A DNA stretch of 64,000 nucleotides, from the NCBI RefSeq assembly GCF_011927665.1, contig NZ_JAATJA010000002.1, positions 992,001 through 1,056,000 of the forward strand, given 5' to 3'. The stretch is from Desulfobaculum xiamenense. GTDB taxonomy: Bacteria > Desulfobacterota > Desulfovibrionia > Desulfovibrionales > Desulfovibrionaceae. How positions within the stretch are numbered: position 1 is the first letter of the stretch; the number at the start of each line of letters is the position of its first letter. The position numbers and the translations under genes are program-made. The notes beneath the pieces were generated by a model. The model did no database searches, was not told where the DNA came from, and was given only the letters and a program-made list of their open reading frames with translations. Shown here in pieces: positions 10,223-52,276 of the stretch.

Positions 10223-12319
10223 ATGCTGCTCAACGAACATCAAAGCAAGCGACTGTTTGCGGAGGCTGGCGTTGCCGTTCCCGAGGGCGTGCCGGTGTCT
10301 GCTACGAATCTCGAATCGGTGAAGCCCAAGTGGCCGCTGCCATGGTTCCTCAAGGCGCAGGTGCTGGCCGGTGGGCGGGGCAAGGCCGGGGGCATTCTGC
10401 GCATCGACGATCCCGACGATCTGGTGCCCTACGCGCGAAAGCTTTTCGCCATGACCATCCGTGGGCGCAGCGTGCCGCTTCTGCGGCTGGAGCGCTCGAA
10501 GGCGTACGAGCGCGAGTTCTACTGCTCGTTCGCCGTTTCGCGGGAACTGGGCTGCCTCGCCTTTTCCGTAGGGCGCAAGGGCGGCATCGACGTGGAGAGT
10601 CAGAGTCAGGACCTGCACAACATCCTCGTGCAGCGCGTGTCCATGACCAGCGGGCTGGAGAACTACCACATTCGGGCCGCGTTCTTCCATCTCGACGTGG
10701 ACAAGGAGCACTGGCCCACCTTCTCCGAATTCGTGCGCAGGATGCATCGCGCCGTCATCGACTACGGCCTGCTGCTGGCCGAGATCAATCCGCTGGTCCT
10801 CGATGCCGACGGCGTGTGGACGGCGCTGGATGGCAAGGTGGAGATGGACGACAACGTCCTGCTCCAGCATTCGGACTTCGAGCGGTTCTACACGCCGGAG
10901 CATGCCTCGCGCGAGGAGAACCGCGCGCGGGAGGTGGGGCTGTCCTACCATTCCCTCGGCGGGCGCATCGGGCTTATGGTCAACGGTGCCGGGCTGGCCA
11001 TGGCCACCATGGATCTTCTGAATCTGTCGGGGCTTGCCGCGGCGAATTTCATGGACCTTGGCGGTGCGGCCGACCTCGACCGCACGCGCACGGCCATGTC
11101 GCTCCTCTTCGAGGACGAGTCCGTGACGAGCGTGTTTATCAATATCTTCGGTGGAGTGCTCTCCTGCGAGAAAGTCGCGCTGGCGCTGGCCGAGGCGTTG
11201 GACGGGCGCGAGCCTCGAAAGCCGCTGGTGGTGCGGCTGTCCGGCAATCAGTCGCCTCGCGGGCGTGAGATTCTCGAAGCCCTCGGCTGTCGCAACATGT
11301 TCATCGTTTCCGAGATGCACGACGCCATCGCCCAGCTCAAGCGCAACGAGGGCATGCGCCTTGGCGAGACGCCGGAGCTGGCCGTGCAGCACGAGATCGT
11401 GCCGTCCGTTCCCGCTGCGTTTCCGCGCAGCTTGCCCTTCGAGAAGGGGCTGCCCGTGCTCGTGCAGGGCATCACCGGGCGCACCGCCCAGTTCCACACC
11501 CGCCTCATGCTGGACTACGGCACGAACATCGTCGCCGGGGTCACGCCCTTCAAGGGCGGGCAGTACGCGCAGGGCATTCCCGTCTACAACAGCATCACCG
11601 AGGCGCTGGAACTCAACAGCATCCGCGCCAGCATCATCTTCGTGCCCGCGGCCTTCGCGCCGGACGCCATCCTCGAAGCCGCGCAGAACGGCATCGAGTG
11701 GGTGATCTGCATCACTGACGGCCTGAAGCAGCAGGACATGCTGCGCGTGCGCGAACAGTTGCGCGGCAGCGGAACGCGCCTCGTGGGGCCGAACTGCCCC
11801 GGACTCATCGCACCGGGCCGTACCAAGATCGGCATCATGCCCGATCACGTGTTCATGCCCGGTCCCGTGGCCATCCTTTCGCGCAGCGGAACCCTGACCT
11901 ACGAGGCCGCCACTCGGCTCACGCGCGTGGGCATCGGGCAGTCGCTGTGCGTGGGCATCGGCGGCGATCCGTTCATCGGCACGTCCTTCAGCGACATGCT
12001 CGGTCCGCTCGAAGAGGACGAAAATACCAAGGCGCTGGTCATCCTCGGAGAGATCGGCGGCACCGCCGAGGAGGAACTGGCCGAACACGTCCGCCGGACG
12101 GGATTTTCCAAGCCCATCGTGGCCTTCGTGGCCGGGCAGACCGCCCCGCCCGGAAAGCGCCTCGGTCACGCCGGGGCCATCCTCGAATCCGGGCGCGGGG
12201 TGGAGGACAAGCTGATGGCCATGGCCAAGGCCGGGTTCGCCATCTGTCCTGACCTGTCGAGCCTGCCACGGCTGGTGGCTCATGCCTTGAGCCGCTGCGA
12301 AGTTCCCGTCTCCGCATAG
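10223..12319 (+). CDS. Fused acyl-CoA ligase, SucC-SucD (beta-alpha) type
   Basis: The 698-residue product joins two proteins that are usually separate. Residues 1 to about 385 match the succinyl-CoA ligase beta subunit (start LLNEHQSKRLFAEAGV, ATP-grasp AGGRGKAGG, GLMVNGAGLAMATMD). Residues from about 400 match the alpha subunit (SGTLTYEAATRLTRVGIGQS, GEIGGTAEEE), with the phosphorylated histidine in GHAGAI at about residue 649. It should couple an acyl-CoA to ADP or GDP phosphorylation. Succinate is the default substrate, but acetate- or malate-CoA ligase activity is possible. The start at 10223 is chosen from the family's N-terminus; the ribosome site is weak. Confidence 0.85.
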   Translation: MLLNEHQSKRLFAEAGVAVPEGVPVSATNLESVKPKWPLPWFLKAQVLAGGRGKAGGILRIDDPDDLVPYARKLFAMTIRGRSVPLLRLERSKAYEREFYCSFAVSRELGCLAFSVGRKGGIDVESQSQDLHNILVQRVSMTSGLENYHIRAAFFHLDVDKEHWPTFSEFVRRMHRAVIDYGLLLAEINPLVLDADGVWTALDGKVEMDDNVLLQHSDFERFYTPEHASREENRAREVGLSYHSLGGRIGLMVNGAGLAMATMDLLNLSGLAAANFMDLGGAADLDRTRTAMSLLFEDESVTSVFINIFGGVLSCEKVALALAEALDGREPRKPLVVRLSGNQSPRGREILEALGCRNMFIVSEMHDAIAQLKRNEGMRLGETPELAVQHEIVPSVPAAFPRSLPFEKGLPVLVQGITGRTAQFHTRLMLDYGTNIVAGVTPFKGGQYAQGIPVYNSITEALELNSIRASIIFVPAAFAPDAILEAAQNGIEWVICITDGLKQQDMLRVREQLRGSGTRLVGPNCPGLIAPGRTKIGIMPDHVFMPGPVAILSRSGTLTYEAATRLTRVGIGQSLCVGIGGDPFIGTSFSDMLGPLEEDENTKALVILGEIGGTAEEELAEHVRRTGFSKPIVAFVAGQTAPPGKRLGHAGAILESGRGVEDKLMAMAKAGFAICPDLSSLPRLVAHALSRCEVPVSA

Positions 12320-12328
12320 CCACAACGA

Positions 12329-12357
12329 AAAGGGGGCCGGATGTTCCGGCCCCCTTT
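12329..12357. terminator. Bidirectional terminator between the CoA ligase and thioesterase genes
   Basis: An 11-bp perfect stem (AAGGGGGCCGG with CCGGCCCCCTT) is flanked by As on one side and Ts on the other. It sits between convergent genes, 10 bp after one stop and 5 bp after the other, so it can serve both. Confidence 0.85.
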
Positions 12358-12361
12358 CGCG

Positions 12362-12781
12362 TCAGCCCTTTTGGGCGAACAGGTCGCGCAGCCAGTCCGG
12401 CACGCCCACGGGGCGGCCTTCGGCATTGACGCAGGCGTGCTGGGTCATGCCCGTGGCATGCAGCACGCTGCGGTCCTCGCTTCGTATCTCGTAGGAAAAG
12501 GTGATGGAGGCCCGTCCCCAGTCGCTCACGGTGACGTGGACATTGACGAGGTCGTCGAAGCGAATGGGGCGGCGGTAGCGGGCCGAGGCTTCGCGTACGG
12601 GCAGGTACAGGCCGCGTTCTTCCACGGTGCTGTAGCTCATGCCGTATTCGCGGATCAGGTGGCTGCGGGCGCGCTCGAAGAGGTGCAGGTATTCGGCGTA
12701 GTACAGCACCTGCATGGCGTCGGTTTCGCCGTAGGAGACGCGGTGCGCGTACCACGCCTCGGGAGAGGGAATGGCGTTCAT
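12362..12781 (-). CDS. Acyl-CoA thioesterase, YbgC/4HBT family
   Basis: This 139-residue hot-dog fold protein has the YbgC/4-hydroxybenzoyl-CoA thioesterase signature: RVSYGETDAMQVLYYAEYLHLFE, with the catalytic Asp in ETDAMQ. It hydrolyses an acyl-CoA; the substrate cannot be told from sequence. It overlaps the phosphoglycerate mutase gene by 4 bp (ATGA), so the two are co-translated although their functions have no obvious link. Confidence 0.9.
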   Translation of the reverse strand: MNAIPSPEAWYAHRVSYGETDAMQVLYYAEYLHLFERARSHLIREYGMSYSTVEERGLYLPVREASARYRRPIRFDDLVNVHVTVSDWGRASITFSYEIRSEDRSVLHATGMTQHACVNAEGRPVGVPDWLRDLFAQKG

Positions 12782-25373: not shown

Positions 25374-25600
25374 GGCGCTGTGGCCGGGCGTATCGTTCAC
25401 TGCCCAATGCAAGACGTAGGCTCCGCCGGCCAAGGGGCCGCTGGTCCCTTGGAACCCCGATATGCGCTATACGTGGGTGCCCTTGGCGGACCATTCGGCT
25501 TTGCACGACGAAGCCCTAGTTGGGATTGTTAAGGGCCCACGGCCCTTGACCGGGTCCGGGGCAGCGCCCAGGTCGCCGAAGGCCATGCCCCGCGTAGCGG
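25374..25600 (+). repeat. Intergenic repeat element, copy A
   Basis: This is one of seven copies in the window of a ~230-bp element (others at 28.3, 34.2-35.0 and 51.7-52.2 kb). It contains three hairpins in order: H1 from the CCAAGGGGCC region (10 bp, one G-U pair), H2 AAGGGCC-CAC-GGCCCTT, and H3 CCGGGGC-AGC, whose right arm is imperfect here. It fills most of the gap between the polyferredoxin start and the glnQ terminator. Confidence 0.9.
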
Positions 25601-25620: not shown

Positions 25621-25667
25621 AAAAACGCAAGGGCCGGGCCTCCCGCGTGGGGAGGCCCGGCCCTTTT
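25621..25667 (-). terminator. Terminator after the amino-acid ABC operon
   Basis: A stem of about 14 bp (AAGGGCCGGGCCTCCC with its complement) and a short loop lie 22 bp past the glnQ stop. On the minus strand it is followed by GCGTTTTT. A TTTT on the other side makes it potentially bidirectional. Confidence 0.88.
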
Positions 25668-25688
25668 GATGCACAAGAAGGGGACGCG

Positions 25689-28273: not shown

Positions 28274-28499
28274 GCGCAGTGGCGAGGCGGATCGTTCATT
28301 GAGATATGCAAGCCGTAGGCTCCGCCGGCCAAGGGGCCGCTGGCCCCCTGGACCCCCTATATGCGATCTGCGTGGGTGCCCTTTGTGAACCGGTCGGCTT
28401 TGCGCGACAAAGCCCTAGTGGGGATTGTCAAGGGAGTCACTCCCTTGACCGGGTCCGGGGCAGCGCCCCGGTCGCCGAAGGCCATGCCCCGCGCAGCGG
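28274..28499 (+). repeat. Intergenic repeat element, copy B
   Basis: This copy has the same order of hairpins as the others, but the H2 stem reads CAAGGGAG-TCA-CTCCCTTG, a compensated variant. It lies 48 bp from the tatD stop codon. No separate terminator is visible there, so its hairpins may end tatD transcription. Confidence 0.9.
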
Positions 28500-34208: not shown

Positions 34209-34466
34209 CGCTGCGCGGGGCATGGCCTTCGGCGACCGGCGGGACAAAAGGATGCCTTCGGCGACCGGGGCGCTGCCCCGGACCCGGTCAAGGGCCGTGG
34301 GCCCTTGACAATCCCAACTAGGGCTTTGTCGTGCAAAGCCGACCGGCTTGCCAAGGGCACCCACGGATATCGCATATTGGGGGTCCAGGGGGCCAGCGGC
34401 CCCTTGGCTGGCGGAGCCTACGTCTTGCATGTGGTGGTGAACGATACGCCTCGGCCACAGCGACGA
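34209..34466 (-). repeat. Intergenic repeat element, copy C (internal duplication)
   Basis: First of three tandem copies, inverted relative to copies A and B. Near its left end a segment with GCCTTCGGCGACCG occurs twice about 30 bp apart, separated by GGGACAAAAG, so this copy is longer (258 bp). Its H2 hairpin is CAAGGGCC with its exact complement around GTG. Confidence 0.9.
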
Positions 34467-34492
34467 AACGACGCGGCGAAACCGCGATACGT

Positions 34493-34722
34493 GCTGCGCG
34501 GGGTATGGCCTTCGGCGACCGGGGCGCTGCCCCGGACCCGGTCAAGGGCCGTGGGCCCTTAACAATCCCAACTAGGGCTTTGTCGTGCAAAGCCGAACGG
34601 TTTGCCATGGGCACCCACGCAGATCGCATATCGGGGGTCCAGGGGGCCAGCGGCCCCTTGGCTGGCGGAGCCTACGTCTTGCATGGGGCAGTGAACGATA
34701 CAGCTGGGCACAGCGACGAGGC
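34493..34722 (-). repeat. Intergenic repeat element, copy D
   Basis: Second tandem copy, 230 bp, same orientation as C and E. The three hairpins are kept. It joins copy E with only six bases between them. Confidence 0.9.
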
Positions 34723-34728
34723 GGAAAC

Positions 34729-34962
34729 CGCTGCGCGGGGCATGGCCTTCGGCGACCGTGGCTCTGCCCCGGCCCCGGTCAAGGGCCGTGGGCCCTTAAC
34801 AATCCCAACTAGGGCTTCGTCGTGCAAAGCCGACCGGCTTGCCAAGGGCACCCACGGATATCGCATATCGGGGGTCCAGGGGGCCAGCGGCCCCTTGGCT
34901 GGCGGAGCCTACGTCTTGCATGGGGCAGTGAACGATACAGCTAGGCACAGCGACGAGGCGGA
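34729..34962 (-). repeat. Intergenic repeat element, copy E
   Basis: Third tandem copy, 234 bp. H1 and H2 are intact; H3 has one mismatch. It ends 6 bp before the qmoD terminator. Confidence 0.9.
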
Positions 34963-34967
34963 AGACG

Positions 34968-35001
34968 AAAAAAGGCCCGGATCGCAAAGCGATCCGGGCC
35001 T
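34968..35001 (-). terminator. Terminator of the apr-qmo gene string
   Basis: A 13-bp perfect stem (AGGCCCGGATCGC with its complement, AAA/TTT loop) is followed on the minus strand by six Ts. It sits 27 bp past the qmoD stop and closes the aprBA-qmoABCD cluster. Confidence 0.95.
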
Positions 35002-35027
35002 GAAGCAACGGAATTGGCTGTGGCGAA

Positions 35028-49668: not shown

Positions 49669-49698
49669 CGCAATACACTTCGACTACCGGGAGAATCT

Positions 49699-51606
49699 AT
49701 GCTCGACGGAATGCGACAGCATGCCAGTTCCTGGATCGTGAAGATCCTGTTCGGCATCATCATTGTTGTCTTCGTCTTCGCCTTTGGCTCGGGTACCCTG
49801 AGCAACCGCGCGAATGGCGGTGCCGTTCTCGCCTACGTGAACGAGTCCCCCATCCTCATCAAGGACTTCGAGATGGCCTATCAGAGGGCCGTCGAGGCCC
49901 TGCGCCGTCAGAATCCCGGCATCTCCAGCGATGACCTTGCCAGCGCCGGATTCAAGAATCAGGTGCTTAACCGCATGATCAACGACTCGCTCCTCACTGC
50001 CGAGGCCGACAGGCTCGGCGTCACTGTGAGCAAGGACGAGATCCGTGCCCGCATCCTTGAAATCGAGGCCTTCCGCAACAAGGACAACGCCTTCGATACC
50101 CTGGTCTATCAGGCCGTTCTGCGCGGTAGCCACCTGCAGCCCGCCGAGTTTGAGGCTGACATGGCCGAGCAGATCCGTAGCGAGAAGCTGCGCAAGCACC
50201 TGAACCTCTCGGTCACCGTCACCGAAGAGGAAGCCTACGACATGTTCCGCTTCGCCGCCGAGCAGGCCCGCATTGAGTACTTGCTCTTCGGCTGGAAGGA
50301 CTTCGCCGATCAGGTGACCCCGGCCGACGCCGACATCGAGAACTTCTACAAGACCAACGAGGCGAACTTCCGCCGTCCCGCTACTGCGGACTTCGCCACC
50401 CTCACCTTCACCCCCCGCGCCCTTGCCGCCCGTCAGGACGTCACCGCCGAGGAGATGAAGGTCTACTACGACGCCAACATGTCGCAGTTCGAGCAGCCCG
50501 AGATGGTTTCCGCTCGCCACATCCTCATCAAGGTGGCCCCCGGCGCTTCCGCTGCCGAGGTTGAAACCGCCCGCAAGAAGCTTCTCGACATTCAGGGCCG
50601 TTTGTCCAAGGGCGAATCCTTCGCCCAGCTTGCCGAAAAGTATTCCGAGGGCCCCAGCTCCGTGCGCGGTGGCGACCTCGGCTGGTTCCCCCGTGGCGCC
50701 ATGGTCGAGCCTTTCGAGAAGGCCGCCTTCGCCCTTGAGGCTGGTCACGTTTCCGCCCCCGTGCGTACCGACTTCGGTTGGCATCTCATCCGCGTGGACG
50801 AGAAGCGCGCCGCTGGCGTCAAGACCTTCGACGAGGCCCGTGAGGAGATTCGTTCCCTCATCGCCGAGGAGAAGGCTTCCGAGCGCATTTCCGACGTTCT
50901 CGATCAGGCCCTCGAACAGATTCTCGCCGGTGACAAGATCGACAAGATCGCTGCCGATGCTGGTCTGACCGCTGTCCAGACCGGTCCCATGACCAAGGAT
51001 ATGCTCGCTTCCCGCCTCGGCGTGAGCGAAGAGGACGCCGACAGGCTCTTCTCCACCTCCCTTGGCACCGGAACCGACACTCCCGTCAGCGTCGATCAGG
51101 GCTACATGATCGCCTTCAAGGTCGCTGAGACCGAGGCGACCATCGCTCCTCTCGACGAGGTGCGCGAGCAGATCGTCGAGGCTCTCAAGCGTCAGGGCGC
51201 TACCGCCCTCGCGCAGGGCAAGGCCGATGCCGTGCTCGCCGAGCTTCGCGATGCCGACAAGGCCAAGGCCGCCATGGCCGAATACGGCAAGTCCATGGAG
51301 AAGAGCGCCGAGTTCGGCCGTCAGGGCTTCATCCCCGGACTGGGCATGAATCCCGGACTGGTCGAGGCCGCTTTCCTGACCGAAGTCAGCAACTGGCTGC
51401 CCCAGTCCTACACCGTCGGCGAAGGCGTCGTCATCGCCCGTATGGTCGAGCGCGTCATGCCTTCCGACAAGCTCTGGAATACCCAGAAGGACTACGTCCT
51501 CGACGCCCTTACCCGGACCAAGGAAAACGAAATGTTCCAGGCTTTCCTGAAGTCCCTGCGCGACAAGGCCGAGATTCGCGTCGCTGATAGCCGCGTTCTC
51601 GAATAG
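49699..51606 (+). CDS. ppiD: Membrane-anchored peptidyl-prolyl isomerase, PpiD-like
   Basis: The 635-residue product has one N-terminal membrane anchor (about 13-33, WIVKILFGIIIVVFVFAFG), a SurA-type N-terminal chaperone region, and a parvulin rotamase domain at about 270-365 (SARHILIKVAPG, GGDLGWFPRGAMVEPFEKAAF). A second parvulin-like helical part follows. PpiD sits at the inner membrane and helps newly exported proteins fold. GGGAGA precedes the ATG. It ends at a strong terminator and is probably co-transcribed with aconitase. Confidence 0.93.
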   Translation: MLDGMRQHASSWIVKILFGIIIVVFVFAFGSGTLSNRANGGAVLAYVNESPILIKDFEMAYQRAVEALRRQNPGISSDDLASAGFKNQVLNRMINDSLLTAEADRLGVTVSKDEIRARILEIEAFRNKDNAFDTLVYQAVLRGSHLQPAEFEADMAEQIRSEKLRKHLNLSVTVTEEEAYDMFRFAAEQARIEYLLFGWKDFADQVTPADADIENFYKTNEANFRRPATADFATLTFTPRALAARQDVTAEEMKVYYDANMSQFEQPEMVSARHILIKVAPGASAAEVETARKKLLDIQGRLSKGESFAQLAEKYSEGPSSVRGGDLGWFPRGAMVEPFEKAAFALEAGHVSAPVRTDFGWHLIRVDEKRAAGVKTFDEAREEIRSLIAEEKASERISDVLDQALEQILAGDKIDKIAADAGLTAVQTGPMTKDMLASRLGVSEEDADRLFSTSLGTGTDTPVSVDQGYMIAFKVAETEATIAPLDEVREQIVEALKRQGATALAQGKADAVLAELRDADKAKAAMAEYGKSMEKSAEFGRQGFIPGLGMNPGLVEAAFLTEVSNWLPQSYTVGEGVVIARMVERVMPSDKLWNTQKDYVLDALTRTKENEMFQAFLKSLRDKAEIRVADSRVLE

Positions 51607-51632
51607 CCCCATCGCCATATCGAGCCATCATC

Positions 51633-51665
51633 AAGCCCGCCGGAGTCCCTCCGGCGGGCTTTTTT
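51633..51665 (+). terminator. Terminator after ppiD
   Basis: AAGCCCGCCGGA pairs with TCCGGCGGGCTT around a 5-base loop and is followed by six Ts. Confidence 0.95.
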
Positions 51666-51699
51666 GTGGGCGTCAGTTGTGTCCTGCCGTATCGCGTGG

Positions 51700-51924
51700 G
51701 CGCTGTGGCTGGGCCGTATCGTTCTTTGACGGGTGCAAGCCGTAGGCTCCGCCGGCCAAGGGGCCGCTGGCCCCCTGGACCCCCGATATGCGATGGGCGT
51801 GGGTGCCCTTGGCGGGGCGTGCGGCTTATAGGGACGAAGCCCTAGTGAGGATTGTCAAGGGGGTCACCCCCTTGACCGGGTCCGGGCAGAGCCCGGCCGC
51901 CGGAGGCTGTGCTCCGCGCAGCGG
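51700..51924 (+). repeat. Intergenic repeat element, copy F
   Basis: This copy has H2 as CAAGGGGG-TCA-CCCCCTTG and H3 as CCGGGC-AGA-GCCCGG, both compensated variants of the stems in other copies. Its end reads GGCCGCCGGAGGC where copies A-E have GGTCGCCGAAGGC. It is followed directly by copy G. Confidence 0.9.
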
Positions 51925-51927
51925 CGA

Positions 51928-52153
51928 GCGCTGTGGCTGGGGCGTGTCGTTCGCTGCCACATGCAAGCCGTAGGCTCCGCCGGCCAAGGGGCCGCTGGCC
52001 CCAGGACCCCTGATATGCGATGGGCGTGGGTGCCCTTGGCGGGTCGTGTGGCTTATACGGACGAAGCCCTAGTTGGGATTGTTAAGGGCCCACGGCCCTT
52101 GACCGGGGTCCGGGGCTGGCCCCGGCCGCCGGAGGCTGTGCTCCGCGCTGCGG
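51928..52153 (+). repeat. Intergenic repeat element, copy G
   Basis: Tandem partner of copy F, with the GCC/GGC form of H2 and CCGGGGC-TG-GCCCCGG as H3. F and G share the GGCCGCCGGAGGC end, which marks them as a separate subgroup from A-E. Confidence 0.9.
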
Positions 52154-52202
52154 CTCGGCTGTGTGAGCGGCTCGTGCCGTGGCGGCCGGGCGACGTGGGC
52201 AT

Positions 52203-52234
52203 GAAAAAGCCCCACGGGGGGAGACCCGTGGGGC
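52203..52234 (-). terminator. Terminator after the DUF169 gene
   Basis: A 10-bp perfect stem (GCCCCACGGG with its complement) with a 6-base loop is followed on the minus strand by TTTTT. It lies 43 bp past the stop codon. Confidence 0.92.
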
Positions 52235-52276
52235 GCAGGATGAGACGAGGGGTGAAGTGTCCTTCGTCGGGCAGGG

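What the first reader, a model, noticed from the sequence alone, without database searches (positions are those of the whole stretch)
34209..34962. Family of seven ~230-bp intergenic repeats, three of them in tandem
The same element occurs at 25374-25600, 28274-28499, 34209-34466, 34493-34722, 34729-34962, 51700-51924 and 51928-52153. Shared landmarks are ATGCAAG(A/C)CGTAGGCTCC, a GAAGCCCTAGT(T/G)GGGATTGT box and a GCCATGCCCCGCGCAGCGG-type end. There are no spacers, so it is not CRISPR, and no transposase or flanking inverted repeats. C-E and F-G are tandem arrays with different junctions, so arrays arise repeatedly. The density (7 in 27 kb) suggests many more in the genome. Candidate: a non-autonomous mobile element or structured RNA family.
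Basis: seen in the sequence. Interest (0 to 1): 0.82.

Follow-up and report, generated by a model that had tools for sequence, protein, structure and literature searches.

The report
Hairpin-chain repeats scattered between bacterial genes
A sulfate-reducing bacterium carries about 80 copies of a hairpin-rich DNA repeat in the gaps between genes; its twin-hairpin heart recurs, in lineage-specific versions, in many genera of its family, so it looks like an old class of miniature repeat whose way of spreading is unknown.

Summary
All seven copies are real, and the family is genome-wide: 80 near-full copies aligned, 76 core-motif matches with 0 in the reversed control, 95 matches of the 5' module with 1. 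It is a modular, non-coding chain of hairpins. Its heart is a twin hairpin plus a GCCGRAGGC tail, whose stems change by compensation (98.8% of cells paired; 197 double changes against 61 in shuffles). A covariance model finds that heart in 84 of 139 genomes of the same family (30 of 44 genera), and in 4 of 297 across the phylum, all four of that family. A congeneric genome has its own 430-bp version, 170 core matches.

Copies avoid genes and favour convergent junctions (30 of 62 arrays against 23 of 214 background), often beyond intrinsic terminators (39 of 88 facing gene ends). No target duplication, Y1/RAYT transposase or Rfam match was found.

Best reading: a non-autonomous, REP/BOX-like interspersed repeat, spread by an unidentified machinery and surviving where harmless. 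It fails defining tests for REPIN-RAYT, MITE and CRISPR. A chromosome-organising role is not excluded.

The parts
25374..25600 (+). Repeat copy A
28274..28499 (+). Repeat copy B, beside the 3' end of a TatD-type nuclease gene
34253..34466 (-). Repeat copy C
34209..34252 (-). Duplicated 3' end attached to copy C (second GCCGAAGGC tail)
34493..34722 (-). Repeat copy D
34729..34962 (-). Repeat copy E
51700..51924 (+). Repeat copy F
51928..52153 (+). Repeat copy G
25527..25583 (+). Twin-hairpin core of A (model R1)
   Evidence: 65.4 bits
28426..28482 (+). Twin-hairpin core of B
   Evidence: 75.7 bits
34254..34310 (-). Twin-hairpin core of C
   Evidence: 73.9 bits
34508..34564 (-). Twin-hairpin core of D
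   Evidence: 71.9 bits
34745..34801 (-). Twin-hairpin core of E
   Evidence: 64.7 bits
51853..51907 (+). Twin-hairpin core of F
   Evidence: 69.6 bits
52080..52136 (+). Twin-hairpin core of G
   Evidence: 68.9 bits
34131..34160 (+). Terminator-like hairpin after the Trp/Tyr permease gene, before array C-E
34965..35002 (-). Terminator-like hairpin of the gene on the other side of array C-E
51632..51669 (+). Terminator-like hairpin to the left of array F-G
52201..52235 (-). Terminator-like hairpin to the right of array F-G
25630..25671 (.). Terminator-like palindrome between copy A and the ABC-transporter gene to its right

Best explanation
It is a non-autonomous, modular interspersed repeat of the REP/BOX style. 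Shown: about 80 near-full copies; a chain of hairpins with near-invariant linkers and compensating stems; placement outside genes, with a strong excess between convergent genes and often beyond their terminators; local tandem duplication; lineage-specific versions of one twin-hairpin heart across the family. Inferred: new copies arise when the folded single strand is copied or moved by an enzyme acting in trans that recognises the twin hairpin and leaves no target duplication; the compensating stems are kept because folding is needed for that step; copies in genes or promoters are lost, so survivors pile up in harmless gaps; tandem arrays grow by unequal exchange or slippage; each lineage amplifies its own current version.
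For: Copy number and dispersal. Constraint is uneven within copies: 97 of 208 columns at least 97% identical and 33 at most 70%, against 0.5 and 0.0 under a uniform model, so specific positions matter. Covariation across genera and within the genome. 0 of 80 copies lie more than half inside a called gene. Convergent junctions 30 of 62 arrays against 23 of 214, Fisher p 9e-10 (contexts, background). A terminator before the element at 39 of 88 facing gene ends, 1-2 in shuffles; 12 of 294 regions upstream of genes pass the same scan. PMC3049150 (passages read) reports the same convergent excess for BOX, RUP, SPRITE and IS elements in pneumococcus. 27 of 35 tandem copies are closest to a copy in their own array. 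Presence/absence at the same gene junction between two congeners. Family-wide distribution in lineage-specific versions.
Against: No mobilising enzyme was identified. No target duplication: longest shared flank word 5.09 against 4.85 (4.53-5.38) in re-paired flanks. No similarity of the two ends above shuffles. No within-species empty site was available. Copies are nearly absent from C1, 48% of the genome (6 of 95 matches), which plain dispersal does not predict. The deficit at divergent junctions, which loss from promoters predicts, is not significant (2 of 62 against 21 of 214, p 0.12).
Confidence: 0.6

Rival explanations
1. A structured RNA family: the twin hairpin is transcribed, from its own promoter or by read-through, and acts as a small RNA or 3'-end element (stability, termination, titration of an RNA-binding protein).
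For: Strong compensatory evolution with conserved linkers. Placement downstream of genes. In other genera 0 of 22 classifiable intergenic cores lie between divergent genes.
Against: Many copies lie beyond the neighbours' own terminators. G-U and A-C departures are balanced when each is counted once (G001 8 against 12; own stem 2 against 3). No Rfam family at gathering score in the window; the only weak match in the array is 20 bits against a cut-off of 58.6. Covariation is also expected from DNA hairpins and from template-switch correction of palindromes (known process, recalled).
Confidence: 0.15
2. A DNA-level device of chromosome organisation at convergent junctions: a supercoil sink or gyrase target, or a site read by a replication or segregation protein, kept by selection and homogenised within each genome.
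For: Convergent preference in two species. In the congener G001, 46 of 55 sampled copies, and 24 of 29 at convergent junctions, are oriented with GC skew. In the window's genome C1, nearly half the genome and holding a terminus-like skew switch, is almost free of copies. Four window-genome sites have a G001-type copy at the matching gene end in G001 or D. bizertense (B, C-E, F-G, and the L018 site).
Against: The two genome-scale patterns are not known to be shared: the own family has no skew orientation (38 agree, 45 disagree). G001 occupies 30 of 48 convergent junctions in stretches chosen around its copies, so shared sites may be independent hits. Of 23 orthologous junctions compared by gene pairs, 1 is occupied in both, 1 in the own genome only and 3 in G001 only.
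Confidence: 0.15
3. REP/REPIN sequences moved by a RAYT (Y1 tyrosine transposase).
For: High copy number, palindromes, extragenic placement, mosaic arrays.
Against: No Y1 transposase match in the own genome or in G001. Y1 matches occur in 7 of 17 genomes with a DNA match to the repeat and in 27 of 42 without. The unit is about 230 bp, with no terminal tag at a palindrome end.
Confidence: 0.04
4. A classical MITE derived from an insertion sequence of the DDE type.
For: Small, non-coding, dispersed, strong secondary structure.
Against: No terminal inverted repeats above shuffled ends and no target duplications.
Confidence: 0.06

Closest known systems
REP / BIME / REPIN sequences (E. coli, Pseudomonas)
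   Same: High copy number, extragenic, palindromic, mosaic and tandem arrangements, preference for convergent and tandem junctions (PMC3733652: start of abstract, passages).
   Different: REPs are 20-40 bp, most with a GTAG or CGTC end tag, and REPINs are doublets linked to RAYTs (PMC3733652 and PMC3116915, passages). This unit is about 230 bp (430 bp in G001), built round a covarying twin hairpin, with no Y1 match in the genome.
Pneumococcal BOX elements
   Same: Modular hairpin repeat with tandemly repeated modules; excess between convergent genes (PMC3049150, passages).
   Different: BOX is described from streptococci, with terminal inverted repeats likened to those of ISSpn2. Here the ends are not inverted repeats, and the matches over the phylum were in one family.
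MITEs
   Same: Small, non-coding, folded, dispersed.
   Different: No terminal inverted repeats and no target duplications found.
Intrinsic terminators
   Same: GC-rich hairpins near gene ends.
   Different: No T tract in the core consensus; separate terminators already lie between gene and repeat in many cases.

Membership tests
REP/REPIN-RAYT | 20-40 bp palindrome with GTAG or CGTC at one end | tested here: not met
   Unit about 230 bp; GTAG occurs inside it but not at the end of a palindrome (read by eye on the consensus; definition)
REP/REPIN-RAYT | RAYT (Y1 transposase) in the genome | tested here: not met
   PF01797: 0 in own genome, 5 of 14 control genomes ring; 0 in G001
REP/REPIN-RAYT | Extragenic, high copy number | tested here: met
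MITE | Terminal inverted repeats | tested here: not met
   End-to-end similarity 7.0 against shuffled mean 6.96
MITE | Target site duplication | tested here: not met
   45 solitary copies; the copy boundaries are not exact, so short duplications could be missed
MITE | Partner insertion sequence with the same ends | not tested
BOX elements | boxA/boxB/boxC modules | not tested
   No BOX models were run; similarity is of style only
CRISPR | Short identical repeats with regular unique spacers | tested here: not met
   Units about 230 bp, mostly dispersed copies, array copies in the window separated by 4 to about 30 bases
Described RNA family (Rfam 15) | Match at gathering score | tested here: not met
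   0 in the window; best weak match in the array 20 bits against a cut-off of 58.6
Structured RNA | Compensatory base pairs | tested here: met
   alignment fitted to the model, so it leans towards the structure; pairing falls to 69-70% when slid by one column
Structured RNA | Transcription | not testable with these tools
   No expression data on hand

The most novel reading that the evidence does not exclude
A family-wide, RAYT-independent repeat system tied to replication or chromosome topology: structured DNA units at convergent junctions that are copied or selected in step with the replication fork (fork-wise orientation in one species, near absence from C1 in another), with each lineage rewriting the stems while keeping the fold.
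Probability: 0.13. Interest if true: 0.8.

Novelty: new variant of a known kind. Interest (0 to 1): 0.5.

Why it matters
My searches found no description of it (papers; Rfam), yet the twin hairpin occurs in 30 of the 44 genera of its family that were sampled. It gives a second, apparently RAYT-free system for asking how hairpin repeats spread and why they gather between convergent genes. The congener with fork-wise orientation makes it testable whether copying is coupled to replication. Practically, the copies may confuse assemblies and could serve as typing markers for sulfate reducers.

Tried and rejected
RAYT/Y1 transposase: searched in own genome and 58 relatives; no match in own and G001, and no positive relation to the repeat (7 of 17 carriers, 27 of 42 others).

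Target duplications and terminal inverted repeats: none found.

Strand test for RNA (G-U against A-C): significant when all copies are counted (21 against 61 in G001, which on the opposite strand is an excess of G-U), but 8 against 12 when each event is counted once. In the model alignment G-U 19 against A-C 0, but the model itself favours G-U. Treated as inconclusive.

Orientation with replication in the own family: no signal. In G001: signal, with contigs C4 (5 and 4) and C6 (4 and 11) mixed among the 100 listed places.

Pattern search was wrongly written: it found nothing even in the own genome, so its zero result is disregarded.

Sharing of sites with G001 as proof of ancient, homogenised copies: not concluded, since G001 occupies 30 of 48 sampled convergent junctions.

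Phages, plasmids, viral contigs: no match for own copy D in plasmids and phages, nor for one exact core string in viral contigs. The G001 element matches no phage and one D. bizertense record called a plasmid, which has a 22.8-kb internal duplication.

Named loci around qmoC: the tool leaves out the window's own or very near genomes; no core match better than E 0.65 in those 80 loci.

First alignment counts for stem S7 were spoiled by gaps; counts for hairpins H1 and H3 of G001 in that call used wrong registers. S7 and H3 were looked at again, H3 to H5; H1 was not.

Full report
Observation. The third copy carries an extra, partial 3' end at 34209-34252. In the whole genome (3.64 Mb, 8 contigs) BLAST gave 57 matches although only 40 of 100 candidates were scored. 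The 20-base core with up to 3 mismatches occurs 76 times, 0 times in the reversed control; the 5' module 95 times, 1 in the control. I took stretches around most of these places and aligned 80 near-full copies; the stretch around one core match (C2:334979) was not fetched.

Anatomy. The unit runs from about CGC(A/T)GTGGC, through GTATCGTTC, ATGCAAG(A/C)CGTAGGCTCCGCC, GAAGCCCTAGTGAGGATTGT, a first hairpin, CGGG(G)TCC, a second hairpin, and CGCCG(G/A)AGGC; some copies go on to GCGCAGCGG. It is not part of called genes: 0 of 80 copies lie more than half inside one, 1 more than a tenth. Divergence is very uneven: 97 of 208 columns are at least 97% identical and 33 at most 70%, against 0.5 and 0.0 expected if changes fell evenly. 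Extra 5'-module pieces stand beside some copies, and some 3' flanks hold that module inverted. So it is a mosaic repeat.

Structure. In the own genome the first stem is TCAAGGGGG/CCCCCTTGA, TCAAGGGCC/GGCCCTTGA, TCAAGGGAA/TTCCCTTGA and others; the second changes length on both arms together. Cores from other genera keep the layout with other stems. On 56 matches (55 distinct) from 39 chosen sources 98.8% of 833 cells pair, 197 cells are changed on both sides (shuffles 60.6, sd 5.7), and sliding the partner by one column drops pairing to 69-70%. The alignment was fitted to the model, which favours the structure, but probably not by this margin. Covariation does not tell RNA from DNA hairpins; the wobble test was inconclusive.

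Distribution. A covariance model from 15 sequences finds the twin hairpin in 84 of 139 genomes of the GTDB family, own included, in 30 of 44 genera (at most about 40 candidates scored per genome), and in 4 of 297 genomes drawn over the phylum, all four of the same family (18 candidates scored per genome; at least 11 of the 297 are of that family, 273 without a match are not listed). By plain DNA, 17 of 59 genomes (own included) match; in the others the listed matches cover only the two hairpin modules. The congener G001 has its own version of about 430 bp, with 170 matches to its core and 0 in the control. Its other hairpins also change by compensation, and it shares the stretch TGAGGAT-hairpin-CGGGGTCC-hairpin with the own family. 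The G001 element is 84% identical over 91% to a copy in Desulfobaculum bizertense NZ_CP090010.1, where the (incomplete) gene table has no feature under it. I therefore take the genus to be Desulfobaculum, by inference.

Where copies sit. With a simple codon-based gene caller, 62 arrays lie between genes as 30 convergent, 30 tandem and 2 divergent. In 15 other stretches of the own genome the junctions are 23 convergent, 170 tandem and 21 divergent. Convergent excess: odds ratio 7.8, p 9e-10; divergent deficit: p 0.12. In G001 30 of 48 convergent junctions hold a copy against 27 of 229 others, in stretches chosen around copies. In other genera, of 26 loci chosen, 22 could be classified: 7 convergent, 15 tandem, 0 divergent; 1 core was inside a called gene and 3 lacked a gene on one side. 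An intrinsic terminator stands between gene and repeat at 39 of 88 facing gene ends in the own genome (shuffles 1-2) and at 22 of 77 in G001 (shuffles 0-3); the same scan passes 12 of 294 and 20 of 280 regions upstream of genes. Arrays C-E and F-G in the window lie between two facing terminators; none was found at B. In pneumococcus BOX, RUP, SPRITE and IS elements show the same convergent excess (PMC3049150, passages), which fits survival in harmless places.

Turnover. At the gene ends next to B, C-E and F-G, G001 also has a repeat, but of its own family; beside B nothing aligned on the other side. The same holds for one more site between the own genome (L018) and the D. bizertense record. 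A count over gene pairs adjacent in both found 23 orthologous junctions: 1 occupied in both (F-G), 1 in the own genome only (L033, a 54-bp gap in G001), 3 in G001 only (among them a 43-bp gap at window 12319-12362), 18 in neither; it did not catch B and C-E. So copies come and go, but shared occupancy may be independent, since G001 fills many of the sampled convergent junctions.

Two genome-scale patterns, not known to be shared. In the own genome contig C1, 48% of the sequence, holds 6 of 95 module matches. Ten sampled C1 stretches (199 kb) hold none; five C2 stretches, which I placed between known copies, hold none either. GC skew in those samples switches from plus to minus between 420 and 550 kb of C1, as at a terminus. 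Copy orientation shows no relation to skew (38 agree, 45 disagree). In G001, 46 of 55 copies, and 24 of 29 at convergent junctions, are oriented with GC skew after masking the copies themselves; by stretch 17 agree, 1 disagrees, 4 tie. All 32 C1 copies among the first 100 of 170 places point the same way, while C4 and C6 are mixed. Genes in those stretches are not leading-biased (139 against 160). I cannot explain either pattern.

How it works. Shown: dispersal, structure, placement, local tandem growth. Not shown: movement. Y1 transposases gave no match in the own genome and G001, and no target duplications or terminal inverted repeats were found. The most likely account is copying of a folded single strand by an enzyme acting in trans. 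IS91-type HUH transposases, reverse transcriptases and integrases were not searched.

Comparison with what is known. It works like REP/BIME or BOX repeats. It is not a REP/REPIN by size, tag and enzyme; BOX membership was not tested. Rfam has no family matching at its cut-off. Papers: the searches listed no title on such a repeat in Desulfovibrio; most listed papers were seen only as listings. PMC3733652, PMC2267715 and PMC3116915 have 0 occurrences of 'Desulfo' in the main text. PMC11124144, on noncoding RNAs of Oleidesulfovibrio alaskensis, has 0 of 'repeat'. PMC8069399 tells that REP-PCR and ERIC-PCR fingerprints were used to type D. desulfuricans strains, some of which did not contain these sequences (passages); the passages name no repeat of the present kind. 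PMC5317091 has its REP phrase in the reference list only. Only open-licence papers were searchable, so an older report may exist.

Limits. Gene calls are crude. One reading next to array F-G is open on both strands; the terminator supports the plus strand. Copy counts per genome are lower bounds. Covariance-model E-values are rough by the tool's own statement.

Noticed in passing
L044:865-3026 (own genome C3:83464-85625): One copy is interrupted by a low-GC insert of 2162 bp with ends GGTATTAAGTAGCAAA and its inverse, and two ORFs (137 and 483 aa); the larger matches PADLOC candidate defence family PDC-M36A (E 5e-11). Looks like a small transposon or island carrying a candidate defence gene.
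   Followed up: partly
G001 (L079, L082, L085-L104): The 430-bp repeat of the congener is oriented with GC skew in 46 of 55 sampled copies; the window's family is not.
   Followed up: partly
Own genome C1 (0-1.1 Mb): No pattern match in the first 1.1 Mb of the largest contig, which holds a terminus-like skew switch.
   Followed up: partly
L196 (own genome C1:1300000-1319900): GC 0.496 and only 8% called coding, against GC 0.61-0.67 in the other 14 sampled stretches; perhaps an island that the gene caller misreads.
   Followed up: no
L064:1479-1541, L222:1501-1564: The core's tail, with its GGAGG, ends 7-8 bases before a called start codon in two loci of another genus; the tail could act as a ribosome-binding site there.
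   Followed up: no
NZ_CP090010.1 (L235, L236): The D. bizertense 'plasmid' holds a 22.8-kb segment twice at 99.6% identity, possibly an assembly artefact, and two repeat copies 98% alike at different sites.
   Followed up: no
own genome C2:989466-990971 and C2:90794-92068: Two DnaA-like genes; the one over the family's cut-off lies 1 kb before the window.
   Followed up: no
window 49684-51618: A long reading is open on both strands (644 aa minus, 635 aa plus); the minus reading has no Pfam or NCBIfam match, and the simple caller chose the plus reading.
   Followed up: partly
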